DNA of 64,000 nucleotides, from NCBI RefSeq assembly GCF_000426045.1, contig NZ_AUEP01000003.1, positions 248,001 to 312,000 on the forward strand, in the 5' to 3' direction. Positions within the stretch are counted from its first letter, which is position 1; each line of letters starts with the position of its first letter. This document shows, piece by piece, positions 54,362 to 57,990 of the stretch. The stretch comes from Marmoricola sp. URHB0036 (GTDB lineage Bacteria > Actinomycetota > Actinomycetes > Propionibacteriales > Nocardioidaceae). Both the position numbers and the translations under genes were made by a program. The notes under the pieces are model-generated. The model was not told where the DNA came from, did no database searches, and saw only the letters and a list, made by a program, of their open reading frames with translations.

Positions 54362-54411
54362 CCAGGACGTCATACGTCCTGGTCGCCATGGCAGCCACTT
54401 CGTATGACGTC
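54362..54411. repeat. Overlapping inverted repeats at the end of the thiol operon
   Basis: CCAGGACGT (54362-54370) pairs with ACGTCCTGG (54374-54382), and GACGTCATACG (54366-54376) pairs alternatively with 54401-54411. They cover the stop codon of the hydrolase gene and probably act as its terminator, 40 nt before the lhr start. Confidence 0.55.
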
Positions 54412-55071
54412 CGAGAGGCGGGCCTGCGACACCAGCCACCCGAAGAGCGCGGGTCCCGTGGCATCCATCTCGGGGTGCCACTGGACGCCGACAGCCGGCC
54501 AGTGGGCTCCTTCCCACTCCAGCGCCTCGACGACCCCGTCGTCCGCGATGGCCGTGACCCGCCAGCCCGGCCCTGTGCGCACGACCGCCTGGTGGTGCAA
54601 CGAGCTCACACTCGTCCGCGTGCCGAGCAGCTCCTGGCACACGGAACCGGTGGACGTGCTGATGGCGTGCCCCTCGCCGGGGCACACGTGCGGTACGTCG
54701 GCCGCCAGAGTCCCCCCGTCCATCACGGCGAACACCTGCGCGCCCCGGCACACGCCCAGGGTCGGCGTCCCCTCCCGCCGAGCGGCCCTGGCGAGGTGGA
54801 TCTCGGCGTCGTCCCGCTCCCGGTCGACGTCCCTCGCGGCCGTGCCGACGCCGTAGAGCAAGGGGTCGAGATCACCACCTCCGGCCAGCACCAGCCCATC
54901 GAGCGCGTCGAGCGCGAGGTGGCCGGCTCCGGGCGGGAGGAGCACCGGTCGCCCGCCGGCGGCCGTCACGTGCTCGACGTACGACTGGGGGATCCCATGG
55001 ACGGCCAGGCGTCCGAACGGCCTGCTCACGACGTACGACGCTGCGGCGATCCCGATGAGTGGGTCGCTCAT
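54370..55071 (-). CDS. Class I glutamine amidotransferase-like gamma-glutamyl hydrolase (PuuD type)
   Basis: A 233-residue peptidase C26-like enzyme that cleaves gamma-glutamyl amide bonds. The nucleophile Cys is in LGVCRGAQV and the His/Glu pair in QWHPEMD; the oxyanion GGGDLDPLLYG stretch is as in PuuD. It is the last gene of a four-gene operon with glutamate-cysteine ligase, ATP-grasp and MAPEG genes, so the likely substrate is a gamma-glutamyl thiol peptide or its conjugate (inference). Its ATG overlaps the MAPEG stop by 1 nt or more (ATGA-type junction). Confidence 0.85.
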   Translation of the reverse strand: MSDPLIGIAAASYVVSRPFGRLAVHGIPQSYVEHVTAAGGRPVLLPPGAGHLALDALDGLVLAGGGDLDPLLYGVGTAARDVDRERDDAEIHLARAARREGTPTLGVCRGAQVFAVMDGGTLAADVPHVCPGEGHAISTSTGSVCQELLGTRTSVSSLHHQAVVRTGPGWRVTAIADDGVVEALEWEGAHWPAVGVQWHPEMDATGPALFGWLVSQARLSDVIRSGCHGDQDV

Positions 55072-55469
55072 CAGGTCGCCAGGACGACTGCCGTCACGGC
55101 AAGGGCGAGCCCGATGACGTAGGTGCCCATGGCGCCGATGTCGCGCAGCGGACCATGGGCGGCCATCGTCTCCGACCTGAGCATCCCGATCGCGTGGATG
55201 TAGCGTGCGAGGACGGCCGCCACGGCCAGCGCATCGACCCACCAGCCGTCGGACAGCGTCCCGCAGATGAGGAGAAGGACGCACAGCGTCGGGACGTACT
55301 CCGACGCGTTCCCGTGGGCACGGATGGCGATGAACATCCGGTCCGTGGGCTCGGTGGGCATCTGGTTGCCGGTCGCGCCGCGGACGGCCCGGTGTCGCGT
55401 CACGTTGGCGCCGAGCAGGAACAGCAACGCTCCGAGGAGCGCGACGCACGTGATCTGGAGTGTGTTCAT
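55071..55469 (-). CDS. MAPEG family membrane protein
   Basis: A 132-residue, four-helix protein of the MAPEG superfamily (microsomal glutathione transferase relatives, YecN-like branch). The signature RMFIAIRAHGNASEYVP includes the Arg, Asn and Glu residues that bind glutathione in the family. Being in one operon with apparent glutathione biosynthesis genes makes a thiol-transferase or peroxidase role at the membrane likely. The ATG overlaps the GshB-like stop by 4 nt. Confidence 0.9.
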   Translation of the reverse strand: MNTLQITCVALLGALLFLLGANVTRHRAVRGATGNQMPTEPTDRMFIAIRAHGNASEYVPTLCVLLLICGTLSDGWWVDALAVAAVLARYIHAIGMLRSETMAAHGPLRDIGAMGTYVIGLALAVTAVVLAT

Positions 55470-56440
55470 GAGAGGACCCTTTCTTCGGAGTGGTGGAGCA
55501 GACGGCGCATGATCACGCCGGACAGGTCGGTGCCCAGCAGGGCGTCCGTCTTGTGCATCCCGCCTGGGCAGGTGACGTTGGCCTCGATCAGGCGGCCGTC
55601 GATGACGTCCAGGCCGGCCAGGACGATGCCGAGACGCCGGAAGTGCGGCGCGAGCGTCGCTACGACGAGACGGTCGCGGTCGTCGGGACCGATCGCAGCC
55701 GCCGGAGGACCGATCCGGAAGTCGTCGAACGACGGGAACCGGTCGACCGCACCGACGATCTCGCCGTCCAGCACGAAGAGGCGCTTGTTGCCGCTGTCGA
55801 CGGAGGACAGGTACTCCTGAACGATCACGTGCCGGCGGCCGCGGCCCGTCGCGGACTCGACCAGCGAACGGGCGTTCCGGTCCTCGCGGCGCAGGAGCCA
55901 GACGTCGATCCCGGCGAACCCGTCGACCGGCTTGAGGACCGCGGTCCCGTGGAGCGCGGCGAACTCCAGCACCCGGTCGACCTCGGCGGTCACCAACGTC
56001 TCCGGGCACAGCTCGGCGAACCGAAGCACCCAGAGCTTCTCCTGCATCTCGCGCACGCCAGCGGCGCGGTTGACCACCTGCACGCCTGCGTCGTGGGCGA
56101 TGTCCAGCAGGTACGTCGTCCGCAGGTACCTGGGGTCCACCGGCGGGTCGAGACGCAGCAACGCCACCTGCACCTCGAGGGCGACGTCGACCACCCGCTG
56201 CTCGACCGCGTCGAACCACGGCGAGTCGACCAACCACCGGTGGTCACCGCTCGGCACCCGGGGGCGGACCTCGATGCGCCGTGCCCGGGCGAGCAGCCGG
56301 CCGGCGACCAGCGCGAGGTCCTCGGGGCCGCACACCCACACCGCCACGCCGGCATCCGTCGCGGCCGCCATCAGCCCGACGTTGCTGTCGATCCCGGCGT
56401 CGAGCCCCTCCAGGGGGTCAACGACGAACAGCGCGCTCAC
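55466..56440 (-). CDS. GshB-like glutathione synthetase (ATP-grasp)
   Basis: A 324-residue ATP-grasp ligase aligned in outline with prokaryotic GshB: an N-terminal VVDPLEGLDAGIDSNVGLM motif (GshB has DP-x-DS/T), LLRLDPPVDPRYLRTTYLLD, VVNRAAGVREMQEKLWVLRF, VLKPVDGFAG for ATP and EANVTCPGG near the end. GshB adds Gly to gamma-Glu-Cys. The GTG start overlaps the ligase stop by 4 nt. Gly as the acceptor is inferred; another amino acid is possible. Confidence 0.85.
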   Translation of the reverse strand: MSALFVVDPLEGLDAGIDSNVGLMAAATDAGVAVWVCGPEDLALVAGRLLARARRIEVRPRVPSGDHRWLVDSPWFDAVEQRVVDVALEVQVALLRLDPPVDPRYLRTTYLLDIAHDAGVQVVNRAAGVREMQEKLWVLRFAELCPETLVTAEVDRVLEFAALHGTAVLKPVDGFAGIDVWLLRREDRNARSLVESATGRGRRHVIVQEYLSSVDSGNKRLFVLDGEIVGAVDRFPSFDDFRIGPPAAAIGPDDRDRLVVATLAPHFRRLGIVLAGLDVIDGRLIEANVTCPGGMHKTDALLGTDLSGVIMRRLLHHSEERVLS

Positions 56441-57474
56441 GCCACACCGACCCGGGTCGGCACGGACCACTCGGCCAGGCTGAGCAGCGCCGAGGAGGTG
56501 TCGGCCAGTACCTCGGGAGCCAGGGCCGCCAGTTCCCAGCGTTCCGCCTGTCTCCGACCGTCGTCCAGCACGAGCCGGAGCGCGCGGCGACGTACCTCGT
56601 CGTCGTACAGCAGCCGGCTGAGCAGGGCCGCGAGCGGCACGACCACGTCGTCGGGCTGCACGTCGAGGAACCGCAGCTCCAGATAGCGGCCACGCGGACG
56701 CACCGGCGGGAAGAGCGTGGACACATGGTGGCGCACGGCCTGCTCGGTGACGCGGTGGGTCCGGGCCCACGACGAGAAAGATCCCCGCCACGAGTCCTCT
56801 CCGGGCATGGCGAACACAGCTGCCCCCGCAGCGAAGGCGGCGTAGTGCGCCACCGGATCGGCCTTCCGCAACAGCCGGTCGTCGTACGCCGTTCGAGACG
56901 GGTCCACGGAGAGCCAGGTAGCCAGCCGCGACGCCGGACCGGCGCTCCGTGCGAACGCCGCCGCCAGGAAGGGCGCGGCCGACAACGCCAGCAGCCACTG
57001 CTCGAGACCGGGGGCGCCGGGCCACCAGTCGAGGCACACCTGGGTCGAGGCCGTACGACGCATCATGCGCCGTCCCGCCGGCCCGATCCCGTCGAGGTGC
57101 CGCTCCATCTCCACGTAGCGGTGGCTGGCGAGCTGGCGTGGCACCGCGCGATCGTCGACCGGGTCCGCGCGGAGCTCGATGCCTGCCGCCCGGCAGTCCG
57201 CACGCAGCAGCTCGATCGTGGTCTGCCACCGGTCCGCCAGCTGGGGCACGGACGGCGAGCAGGGGAGGCTCAGCTCGACCTGACCGCCGGGTTCGAACCC
57301 CACCCAGCTCTCGTACGAGGACCCGCGGATCGCGCGACGCACTCGATCGATCGAGACGACGGAGCCGTCCGACACGTCCCGGGCCAGCAGCTCGTGCTCG
57401 ATGCCGGCGCGGACCGATCGGGACGCGCCGCCCTGGAAGAGGTCAGAGACTTCGCGGAGGAGAAGGTGGTGCAT
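56437..57474 (-). CDS. Glutamate-cysteine ligase (GCS2/EgtA-like)
   Basis: A 345-residue member of the glutamate-cysteine ligase superfamily, which forms gamma-Glu-Cys. Visible parts are GIEHELLARD (metal/ATP Glu), GFEPGGQVELSLP, MMRRTASTQVCLDW and the late RYLELRFLDVQP strand. It is closest to the EgtA branch, where the product feeds ergothioneine, but no egtB/C/D/E genes are here; a GshB-like gene follows instead. ATG after AAGGAG. First gene of the operon, transcribed from a promoter shared with a divergent MarR gene. Confidence 0.87.
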   Translation of the reverse strand: MHHLLLREVSDLFQGGASRSVRAGIEHELLARDVSDGSVVSIDRVRRAIRGSSYESWVGFEPGGQVELSLPCSPSVPQLADRWQTTIELLRADCRAAGIELRADPVDDRAVPRQLASHRYVEMERHLDGIGPAGRRMMRRTASTQVCLDWWPGAPGLEQWLLALSAAPFLAAAFARSAGPASRLATWLSVDPSRTAYDDRLLRKADPVAHYAAFAAGAAVFAMPGEDSWRGSFSSWARTHRVTEQAVRHHVSTLFPPVRPRGRYLELRFLDVQPDDVVVPLAALLSRLLYDDEVRRRALRLVLDDGRRQAERWELAALAPEVLADTSSALLSLAEWSVPTRVGVA

Positions 57475-57484
57475 GACGGGCTCC

Positions 57485-57527
57485 TTGGTAAAGTAAGGTC
57501 GCCTGTCTAAAATAGAAAGGTCACCTT
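57485..57527. promoter_or_regulatory. Overlapping divergent promoters with two MarR-type boxes
   Basis: Plus strand: TTGGTA (57485-57490), 17 nt, TAAAAT (57508-57513). Minus strand: TTGGTA (57531-57526) faces it. Two boxes, AAGGTCGCCTG (57495-57505) and AAGGTCACCTT (57517-57527, an odd palindrome), lie within the promoters and are spaced 22 nt apart, two helical turns. Confidence 0.7.
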
Positions 57528-57531
57528 ACCA

Positions 57532-57990
57532 ATGTCAAGAGAGATCCGCCCTCTGGGTCGTACGCCGCTGATCGGACTCGTGGAGAGGGCAGCCCGCGGG
57601 CTGGGCTCGGACATGATCACCACCGCCCGGGAGCGCGGCTTCACCGAGCTGCGGCTGGCCCATGGCACCGTCTTCGGCAACCTGCCGGGCGAGGGGGCAC
57701 GCGTCACCGAGATGGCTGCCCAGGCCGGCATCACCAAGCAGTCGATGGGCGAGGTCGTCCGTGAGCTGGTGGAGCTCGGGATCTGTGACATGGAGCCGGA
57801 CCCGAACGACCGCCGGGCCAAGATCGTCACCTACACCGAGTACGGCCACCGGGTGGCGGCGGACGGCTTCGGCCACCTTCAACAGGTGGAGCGCCGGCTG
57901 GCGCGCACCTTCGGTGAGGACTACGAGACGGCCCGTCGGGTCCTCGAGTGGGTGATCGAGGAGTATCCGCGCAACGCGGCGGCTCAGTGA
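57532..57990 (+). CDS. MarR family regulator of the thiol operon
   Basis: A 152-residue winged-helix regulator: ARVTEMAAQAGITKQSMGEVVRELV is the HTH and EPDPNDRRAKIVTYT the wing. It contains a Cys in LGICDME next to the wing, which could be redox-active. Divergent from the glutamate-cysteine ligase operon, with two AAGGTC boxes in the shared promoter, so it likely represses both directions. A short hairpin CAGGTgctACCTG follows it. Confidence 0.92.
   Translation: MSREIRPLGRTPLIGLVERAARGLGSDMITTARERGFTELRLAHGTVFGNLPGEGARVTEMAAQAGITKQSMGEVVRELVELGICDMEPDPNDRRAKIVTYTEYGHRVAADGFGHLQQVERRLARTFGEDYETARRVLEWVIEEYPRNAAAQ

What the first reader, a model, noticed from the sequence alone, without database searches (positions are those of the whole stretch)
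54370..57990. Four-gene glutathione-like operon with MarR control in an actinobacterium
Seen: a GCS2/EgtA-like ligase, a GshB-like ATP-grasp enzyme, a MAPEG protein and a PuuD-type gamma-glutamyl hydrolase, each overlapping the next by about 4 nt, divergent from a MarR gene. Known: actinobacteria normally use mycothiol; GshA/GshB pairs are rare there, one case being isoprene-degrading Rhodococcus. Inference: the operon makes a gamma-Glu-Cys-X thiol, uses it at the membrane through MAPEG and recycles or clears conjugates with the hydrolase. A make/use/recycle cassette under one repressor is, as far as I know, not described as a unit. Gly as X is unproven.
Basis: partly seen in the sequence, partly recalled or inferred. 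Interest (0 to 1): 0.75.

Follow-up and report, generated by a model that had tools for sequence, protein, structure and literature searches.

The report
Lidless glutathione-like thiol operon in actinobacteria
A soil actinobacterium that carries mycothiol and ergothioneine genes also has a switchable gene set that looks built to make and use a third, glutathione-like molecule at its membrane, with a ligase so altered that the product may not be ordinary glutathione.

Summary
The operon is real and conserved. GCS2 ligase, GshB-type ATP-grasp, MAPEG and Peptidase_C26 genes lie at 57474-54370 (minus strand; overlaps 4, 4 and 1 nt), divergent from a MarR gene. The core is MarR/GCS2/GshB/MAPEG: 32 of 32 close loci from named genomes have it (Nocardioides, Kribbella, relatives). 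The hydrolase is an accessory (12 of those 32). All 45 distinct marR-gcs2 intergenic regions hold two AGG-N3-CCTT sites and TTGACA. In 341 genomes of the window's family, MAPEG over cut-off occurs in 24, each beside a GshB of this type, known in 25. The genome also has mshC and an egtA-egtB pair elsewhere, so this is a different pathway. New point: this GshB has lost the catalytic lid that the other 57 GshBs compared here keep (50 of 107 are lidless) and forms its own clade; its GCS2 partner also forms a clade apart from EgtA and styrene/isoprene-type GshA. Best reading: a MarR-repressed third-thiol cassette making gamma-Glu-Cys-X for a membrane transferase/peroxidase. Whether X is glycine is open and now looks doubtful. 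"Make and use" is supported; "recycle" is optional and unproven. No thiol was measured.

The parts
56437..57474 (-). GCS2-family gamma-glutamyl ligase (GshA-like), first gene
   Evidence: PF04107 65.5 bits; EgtA model 128 bits against cut-off 371; AlphaFold model nearest plant glutamate-cysteine ligase 2gwc, TM 0.81; own clade in tree
55466..56440 (-). GshB-type ATP-grasp ligase without the lid loop (DFRIGPP in place of RxN...G), GTG start
   Evidence: PF02955/PF02951; TIGR01380 254 bits, below cut-off 299; loop loss; model nearest E. coli GshB 1gsa, TM 0.85
55071..55469 (-). MAPEG protein (membrane glutathione transferase/peroxidase family), with RAHGNASEY
   Evidence: PF01124 66.5 bits; RxxxNxxEY in 49 of 49 distinct module MAPEGs; only MAPEG match in this genome
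54370..55071 (-). Peptidase_C26 (PuuD/GATase-1 type) hydrolase, accessory
   Evidence: PF07722 169 bits; Cys108, His199, Glu201 invariant in 11 aligned; CRG and GVQWHPE in 16 of 16
57532..57990 (+). MarR-family regulator, divergent
   Evidence: PF01047 26.8 bits, cut-off 24.6; homologue next to the module in 32 of 32 loci
57495..57526 (.). Two predicted MarR operators, AAGG-N3-CCT (57495-57504 and 57517-57526)
   Evidence: alignment of 19 intergenic regions; one match in this genome, but the reversed control pattern also has one; double site in 45 of 45 distinct intergenic regions
57509..57538 (-). Predicted promoter of the operon: -35 TTGACA (57538-57533), 18 nt, TATTTT; operator 57517-57526 lies between them, operator 57495-57504 downstream
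   Evidence: read; TTGACA in 45 of 45 intergenic regions; promoter role inferred

Best explanation
An inducible third-thiol cassette. The GCS2 ligase joins glutamate (gamma-carboxyl) to cysteine (inferred), and the lidless GshB-type ligase adds an amine-bearing acceptor X to give a glutathione-like gamma-Glu-Cys-X (inferred; X may be something other than glycine). The MAPEG protein uses that thiol at the membrane to conjugate or reduce lipophilic electrophiles or lipid peroxides (inferred from family and motif). Where present, the C26 hydrolase removes the gamma-glutamyl group from the thiol or its conjugates (inferred, least certain). The divergent MarR binds the two AGG-N3-CCTT sites at the operon promoter and its own gene, and represses until an inducer, probably the toxic substrate, releases it (sites shown by conservation; binding and induction inferred). 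The cell also has mshC and egtA-egtB, so this thiol is probably extra, not the main redox buffer.
For: Core conserved in 19 of 20 fetched loci and 32 of 32 named loci. More distant relatives keep the content with other orders: GCS2-GshB-MAPEG in L185 and L186; GshB-MAPEG-GCS2-C26 in L187; GshB-MAPEG-GCS2 in L189. MAPEG over cut-off in 24 of 341 family genomes, all 24 beside a lidless GshB, known in 25. Of 14 control genomes MAPEG hits only E. coli, Caulobacter and Synechococcus, which I know as glutathione makers. RxxxNxxEY, recalled as the glutathione-site motif of LTC4 synthase/MGST, in 49 of 49 MAPEGs. GshB model nearest 1gsa, GCS2 model nearest plant GCL. mshC 599 bits; EgtA beside EgtB elsewhere. 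Double operator in 45 of 45 regions. Cyanobacterial MAPEG Sll1147 protects against lipid peroxidation (PMC6798054, passages).
Against: No thiol was measured. GshB misses the curated glutathione-synthase cut-offs (253.9 against 299; 254.5 against 272) and lacks the lid; a different ligase reaction is possible. Module GCS2s have Cys (49) or Ala (2) where most EgtA/GshA have Asn (51 of 51), but of 23 EgtA/GshA rows 3 also have Cys and 2 Ser, so this decides nothing. The MAPEG profile found no solved MAPEG by sequence, and the motif's role is recalled, not tested. One of the 25 lidless genomes (G122, L188) has no MAPEG. The genome also has a marginal soluble-GST hit (25.6 bits, cut-off 25) and one just under it (24.5). 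In this genome the reversed operator pattern also matches once.
Confidence: 0.62

Rival explanations
1. It makes plain glutathione (X = glycine); the lid loss is a tolerated quirk, and the module is simply a compact glutathione plus MAPEG detoxification operon.
For: GshB domains and fold are those of glutathione synthetase; MAPEG GSTs use glutathione (PMC10295655, passages); D278, E286 and N288, which I recall as the metal-site residues, are invariant.
Against: Lid motif RxN absent in 50 module GshBs and present in the other 57 of 107 compared; NVTSPT..RE replaced by NVTCPGG..K.DALLG; four genomes (G223, G225, G226, G248) keep a separate canonical GshB as well, which is odd if both make glutathione.
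Confidence: 0.3
2. It is a biosynthetic, not a detoxifying, module: MAPEG attaches the thiol to a lipophilic intermediate and the C26 hydrolase trims gamma-Glu, as plant GGP1 does in glucosinolate and camalexin synthesis, yielding a Cys-type sulfur metabolite.
For: C26 has an intact Cys-His-Glu set and occurs with the module even in the rearranged L187; plant GGP1/GGP3 process glutathione conjugates (PMC11449216, passages); an MFS-type gene abuts the MAPEG gene in L185.
Against: No further biosynthetic family was shared between Kribbella and Nocardioides loci in the components listed (34 loci; components in at least 4 loci, first 40 considered); C26 is missing in most Kribbella loci.
Confidence: 0.15
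3. A gamma-glutamylation pathway of another amine, not a thiol pathway (PuuA/PuuD-like logic).
For: The hydrolase profile matches PuuD-type and related probable amidotransferases (3fij, 7d4r, 6vtv); the GCS2 model also resembles glutamine synthetases, weakly (TM 0.35-0.42).
Against: GshB-type N and C domains; near-obligate pairing with MAPEG.
Confidence: 0.08

Closest known systems
GshA/GshB pairs of isoprene and styrene degraders (Rhodococcus AD45, Gordonia CWB2, Nocardioides WS12)
   Same: Two-step gamma-Glu-Cys-X synthesis genes in actinobacteria; a MarR gene in the cluster (PMC4676930, PMC7355492 and PMC8552685, passages; L118)
   Different: The Gordonia pair (L118, the only one of these I could examine) has a canonical lidded GshB, a divergently transcribed GshA within the EgtA branch, soluble GSTs, an FAD-dependent oxidoreductase and no MAPEG found; here the GshB is lidless and both ligases are separate clades with MAPEG
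E. coli glutathione synthetase GshB (1gsa)
   Same: Fold (TM 0.85), ATP-grasp core
   Different: Lid QGGETRGNLAAGG reduced to a hairpin, NVTSPTCIRE changed; 28% identity
EgtA of ergothioneine synthesis
   Same: GCS2 family
   Different: 128 bits against a cut-off of 371; own genome has EgtA (400 bits) beside EgtB; separate clade
Synechocystis MAPEG Sll1147 / microsomal GST
   Same: MAPEG family (PMC6798054, passages)
   Different: Here the MAPEG gene is tied to its own ligase genes; substrate unknown
Plant GGP1 / bacterial PuuD
   Same: Class I GATase-type gamma-glutamyl hydrolase (GGP1 class recalled; PuuD 6vtv)
   Different: NCBI PuuD model 65 bits against cut-off 266; substrate untested

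Membership tests
Bacterial glutathione synthase (GshB) | NCBIfam equivalog cut-offs (TIGR01380 299; PRK05246 272) | tested here: not met
   253.9 and 254.5 bits; canonical L009 and L118 score 355 and 349 on TIGR01380
Bacterial glutathione synthase (GshB) | Lid loop with RxN[ILMV] | tested here: not met
   absent in 50 module proteins, present in the other 57 of 107
Bacterial glutathione synthase (GshB) | Fold of 1gsa | tested here: met
   TM 0.85
Bacterial glutathione synthase (GshB) | Glycine as acceptor | not testable with these tools
   needs enzyme assay
EgtA | TIGR03444 cut-off and place in egt cluster | tested here: not met
   128 of 371 bits; the genome's EgtA-EgtB pair lies on contig C13
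EgtA | Clusters with EgtA in a tree | tested here: not met
   27 module GCS2s are one side of a branch, SH-aLRT 96
MAPEG | PF01124 above gathering score | tested here: met
   66.5 against 23.4 bits
MAPEG | RxxxNxxEY glutathione-site residues (motif recalled from LTC4S/MGST) | tested here: met
   49 of 49 distinct; that it binds this thiol is untested
PuuD gamma-glutamyl-GABA hydrolase | NF008471 cut-off | tested here: not met
   65 of 266 bits
Peptidase C26 | PF07722 and catalytic Cys-His-Glu | tested here: met
   169 bits
MarR repressor | PF01047 and conserved palindrome-like sites between divergent genes | tested here: met
   26.8 of 24.6 bits; 45 of 45
MarR repressor | Binding to these sites and repression | not testable with these tools
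   needs footprint and expression data
Isoprene/styrene glutathione cluster | Canonical GshB with soluble GST and disulfide reductase genes alongside | tested here: not met
   GshB lidless, other clade; such neighbours not among families shared by 34 module loci

The most novel reading that the evidence does not exclude
The lidless GshB-type ligase adds a bulky or unusual amine (not glycine) to gamma-Glu-Cys, so the module makes a hitherto undescribed low-molecular-weight thiol of Propionibacteriales, dedicated to one membrane MAPEG enzyme and induced on demand beside mycothiol and ergothioneine.
Probability: 0.4. Interest if true: 0.82.

Novelty: new variant of a known kind. Interest (0 to 1): 0.62.

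Why it matters
Actinobacteria are held to rely mainly on mycothiol, with glutathione rare and mostly tied to unusual carbon sources such as isoprene or styrene (PMC8552685, passages). A conserved operon in Nocardioides and Kribbella that pairs a lidless glutathione-synthetase relative with MAPEG would add a second, independent glutathione-type system, probably inducible, and possibly a new thiol. It also gives a natural case of a GshB without the loop that is replaced by glycines in the 1glv structure, a direct test of what that lid does for acceptor choice.

Tried and rejected
Membership in EgtA or in the isoprene/styrene glutathione type was tested and rejected by scores, genome context and trees. 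The GCS2 change from Asn to Cys/Ala in the QVN motif first looked diagnostic, but 3 of 23 EgtA/GshA rows also have Cys and 2 have Ser, so I do not use it. Symmetry of the operators' inner triplets: 20 of 45 and 26 of 45 symmetric against shuffled means of 14.6 and 16.2 (highest of 2000 shuffles 23 and 26); at best weak support. The operator pattern alone is not a marker: 71 of 341 genomes match; by eye the matches outside the module and L125 look like GC-rich chance or other repeats, and the reversed control also matches once in this genome. The MAPEG profile against solved structures gave no real match.

Rows dropped. GshB comparison: 157 rows, 107 kept; 10 dropped as shorter than 270 aa (among them L116, the Euzebyaceae fragment that looks lidless), the rest as identical or duplicate copies. 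GshB tree: 57 rows intended, 5 not in the set, 52 used. Intergenic regions: 93 loci, 48 duplicates, 45 distinct, none lost by the length filter. In the GCS2 tree the row L095, which I labelled EgtA, is in fact near a GshB gene and groups with the canonical GshAs, and L116 is a long branch. Both trees used the quick method (SH-aLRT, no bootstrap).
Full report
WHAT IS THERE. The window lies in a 4.83 Mb genome (G000). On the minus strand four genes follow each other: GCS2 (57474-56437), GshB type (56440-55466), MAPEG (55469-55071), Peptidase_C26 (55071-54370), with overlaps of 4, 4 and 1 nt; MarR (57532-57990) is divergent.

CONSERVATION. Of 20 GshB loci fetched from the same family, 19 have divergent MarR and GCS2-GshB-MAPEG; the twentieth (L044) is a canonical GshB. 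The MarR-GCS2 spacing is 54-58 nt in these 19 and 57 nt here. In the genome-contig scan 55 loci encode a relative. All 32 at 57% identity or more (L063-L094: Nocardioides, many Kribbella, an Aeromicrobium MAG, Pimelobacter simplex, two Propionibacteriales MAGs and a record named Streptomyces sp. SID13031) have the core, L091's MAPEG being cut at a contig end. Of the other 23, 22 are at 45% or less and L116 (a Euzebyaceae fragment, 54% over its best segment) has GCS2 and a partial, lidless-looking GshB; none of the 23 shows a MAPEG or MarR match, though several contigs are short. The two sets (19 and 32) overlap in organisms. C26 follows in 11 of the 19 and 12 of the 32 loci; in L054 (same contig as L069) and L090 it is split between frames, while one Kribbella-like genome (G360; L167, L192) has it in one piece. 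Among 34 loci (L062-L094 and the window) the components listed that join Kribbella and Nocardioides loci are the core, antisense frames within it, and C26 (12 loci); other components stay within one of the two groups (components in at least 4 loci, first 40 considered).

DISTRIBUTION. In 391 genomes drawn from the order, 46 match the GshB profile at 1e-60: 41 score 489 bits or more (14 in the window's family, 27 in one other genus, which I take to be Kribbella), two score 346 and 334 (G353, G559), three score 289, 278 and 241 (G209, G122, G312). In 396 genomes drawn from the phylum, at 1e-40, the own genome has it and two others reach about 141 bits and are canonical. The five intermediate genomes all carry a lidless GshB; four have MAPEG: GCS2-GshB-MAPEG (L185, L186), GshB-MAPEG-GCS2-C26 (L187), GshB-MAPEG-GCS2 (L189); L188 is GshB-GCS2. 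None of the five stretches shows a MarR match. A large AAA_16 protein gene lies near in L185 (with a LuxR-type domain) and L187, and an MFS gene abuts MAPEG in L185.

MAPEG COUPLING. In 341 genomes of the family MAPEG passes its cut-off in 24 (one more, G071, is below it). I looked at all 24: each MAPEG is beside a lidless GshB. Lidless GshB is known in 25 of the 341 (the 24 and G122, which has no MAPEG). Thirteen stronger GshB matches were not fetched; all have a longer domain match (522-534 nt) than the lidless ones (495-507 nt), so I take them for canonical. Weaker matches (under 70 bits) were not examined. Four of the 25 (G223, G225, G226, G248) also have a canonical GshB (L012, L009, L011, L013).

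THE LIGASES. GshB here scores below the curated glutathione-synthase cut-offs. Against 1gsa its lid QGGETRGNLAAGG is missing; the PDB entry 1glv, whose sequence has this loop replaced by glycines, is the engineered counterpart (that such mutants are impaired is recalled). Of 107 distinct GshB proteins, 57 have RxN[ILMV] and none of these has MAPEG in the fetched stretch (often only 1.5 kb of flank); 50 have DFR[IV][GD], and 49 of them have MAPEG. The model (pLDDT 86) has a plain hairpin there (strands 227-237 and 240-249). With loop and second-motif columns left out, lidless GshBs are one side of a branch (SH-aLRT 96; 23 against 29 rows). Module GCS2s are likewise one side of a branch (96, 27 rows), while the five canonical GshAs fall inside a branch with 17 of the 19 rows labelled EgtA. 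The GCS2 model is nearest plant glutamate-cysteine ligase 2gwc (TM 0.81).

OTHER THIOLS. mshC is present (599 bits, cut-off 485), and EgtA (400 bits, cut-off 371) lies directly before EgtB (386 bits, cut-off 360) on another contig. mshA, mshB and mshD were not searched.

CONTROL. All 45 distinct intergenic regions (from 93 loci) have TTGACA, then 5-7 nt to AGG-N3-CCTT, and a second such site about two helix turns on. On the operon strand the first site sits between -35 and -10, the second downstream: a repressor layout (inference). In this genome the double pattern occurs once, but so does the reversed control pattern; the weight lies on the conservation. One further MarR homologue with the same operator (L125, genome G042) faces a DUF427 gene instead.

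MECHANISM AND STATUS. Shown: gene order, conservation, conserved sites, coupling of MAPEG to lidless GshB, lid loss, separate phylogeny, presence of mshC and egtA-egtB. Inferred: substrates, product, membrane use, repression and induction. The cyanobacterial MAPEG Sll1147 guards against lipid peroxidation (PMC6798054, passages), the nearest functional guide. The hydrolase fits a GGP1-like role (PMC11449216, passages), but many module loci lack it.

NOVELTY. Library searches listed no paper that, from titles and abstract starts, describes this operon; I read passages of six papers and no paper whole. The library lacks most subscription journals, including Johnson 2009; Lienkamp 2020 on glutathione in Actinobacteria was seen only as a citation and not looked up. 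Prior notice cannot be excluded.

Noticed in passing
window 54367-54411: A palindromic stretch (arms GACGTCATACG/CGTATGACGTC, read) at the 3' end of the C26 gene has at least 24 further matches in the genome, in both directions and sometimes overlapping or paired (40 of 557 candidates were scored): a REP-like dispersed element that encodes the hydrolase's last residues.
   Followed up: no
L125 1037-2329 (genome G042): A MarR homologue (49% identical) with the same double operator faces a DUF427 gene instead of the thiol operon.
   Followed up: partly
L009-L012: A second, canonical GshB with a divergent EgtA-related GshA in Nocardioidaceae; three of these four genomes also hold the lidless module.
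   Followed up: partly
L014-L038: A separate 346-aa GshB-like family in the same family of bacteria; the members printed have NVFSPGG in place of NVTSPT. Function unknown.
   Followed up: no
L185 4398-5591: An MFS_3-type gene directly after MAPEG in a distant version of the module.
   Followed up: no
L063 6930-7613: About 680 nt separate the GshB and MAPEG matches in this Kribbella locus (also L170); content not examined.
   Followed up: no
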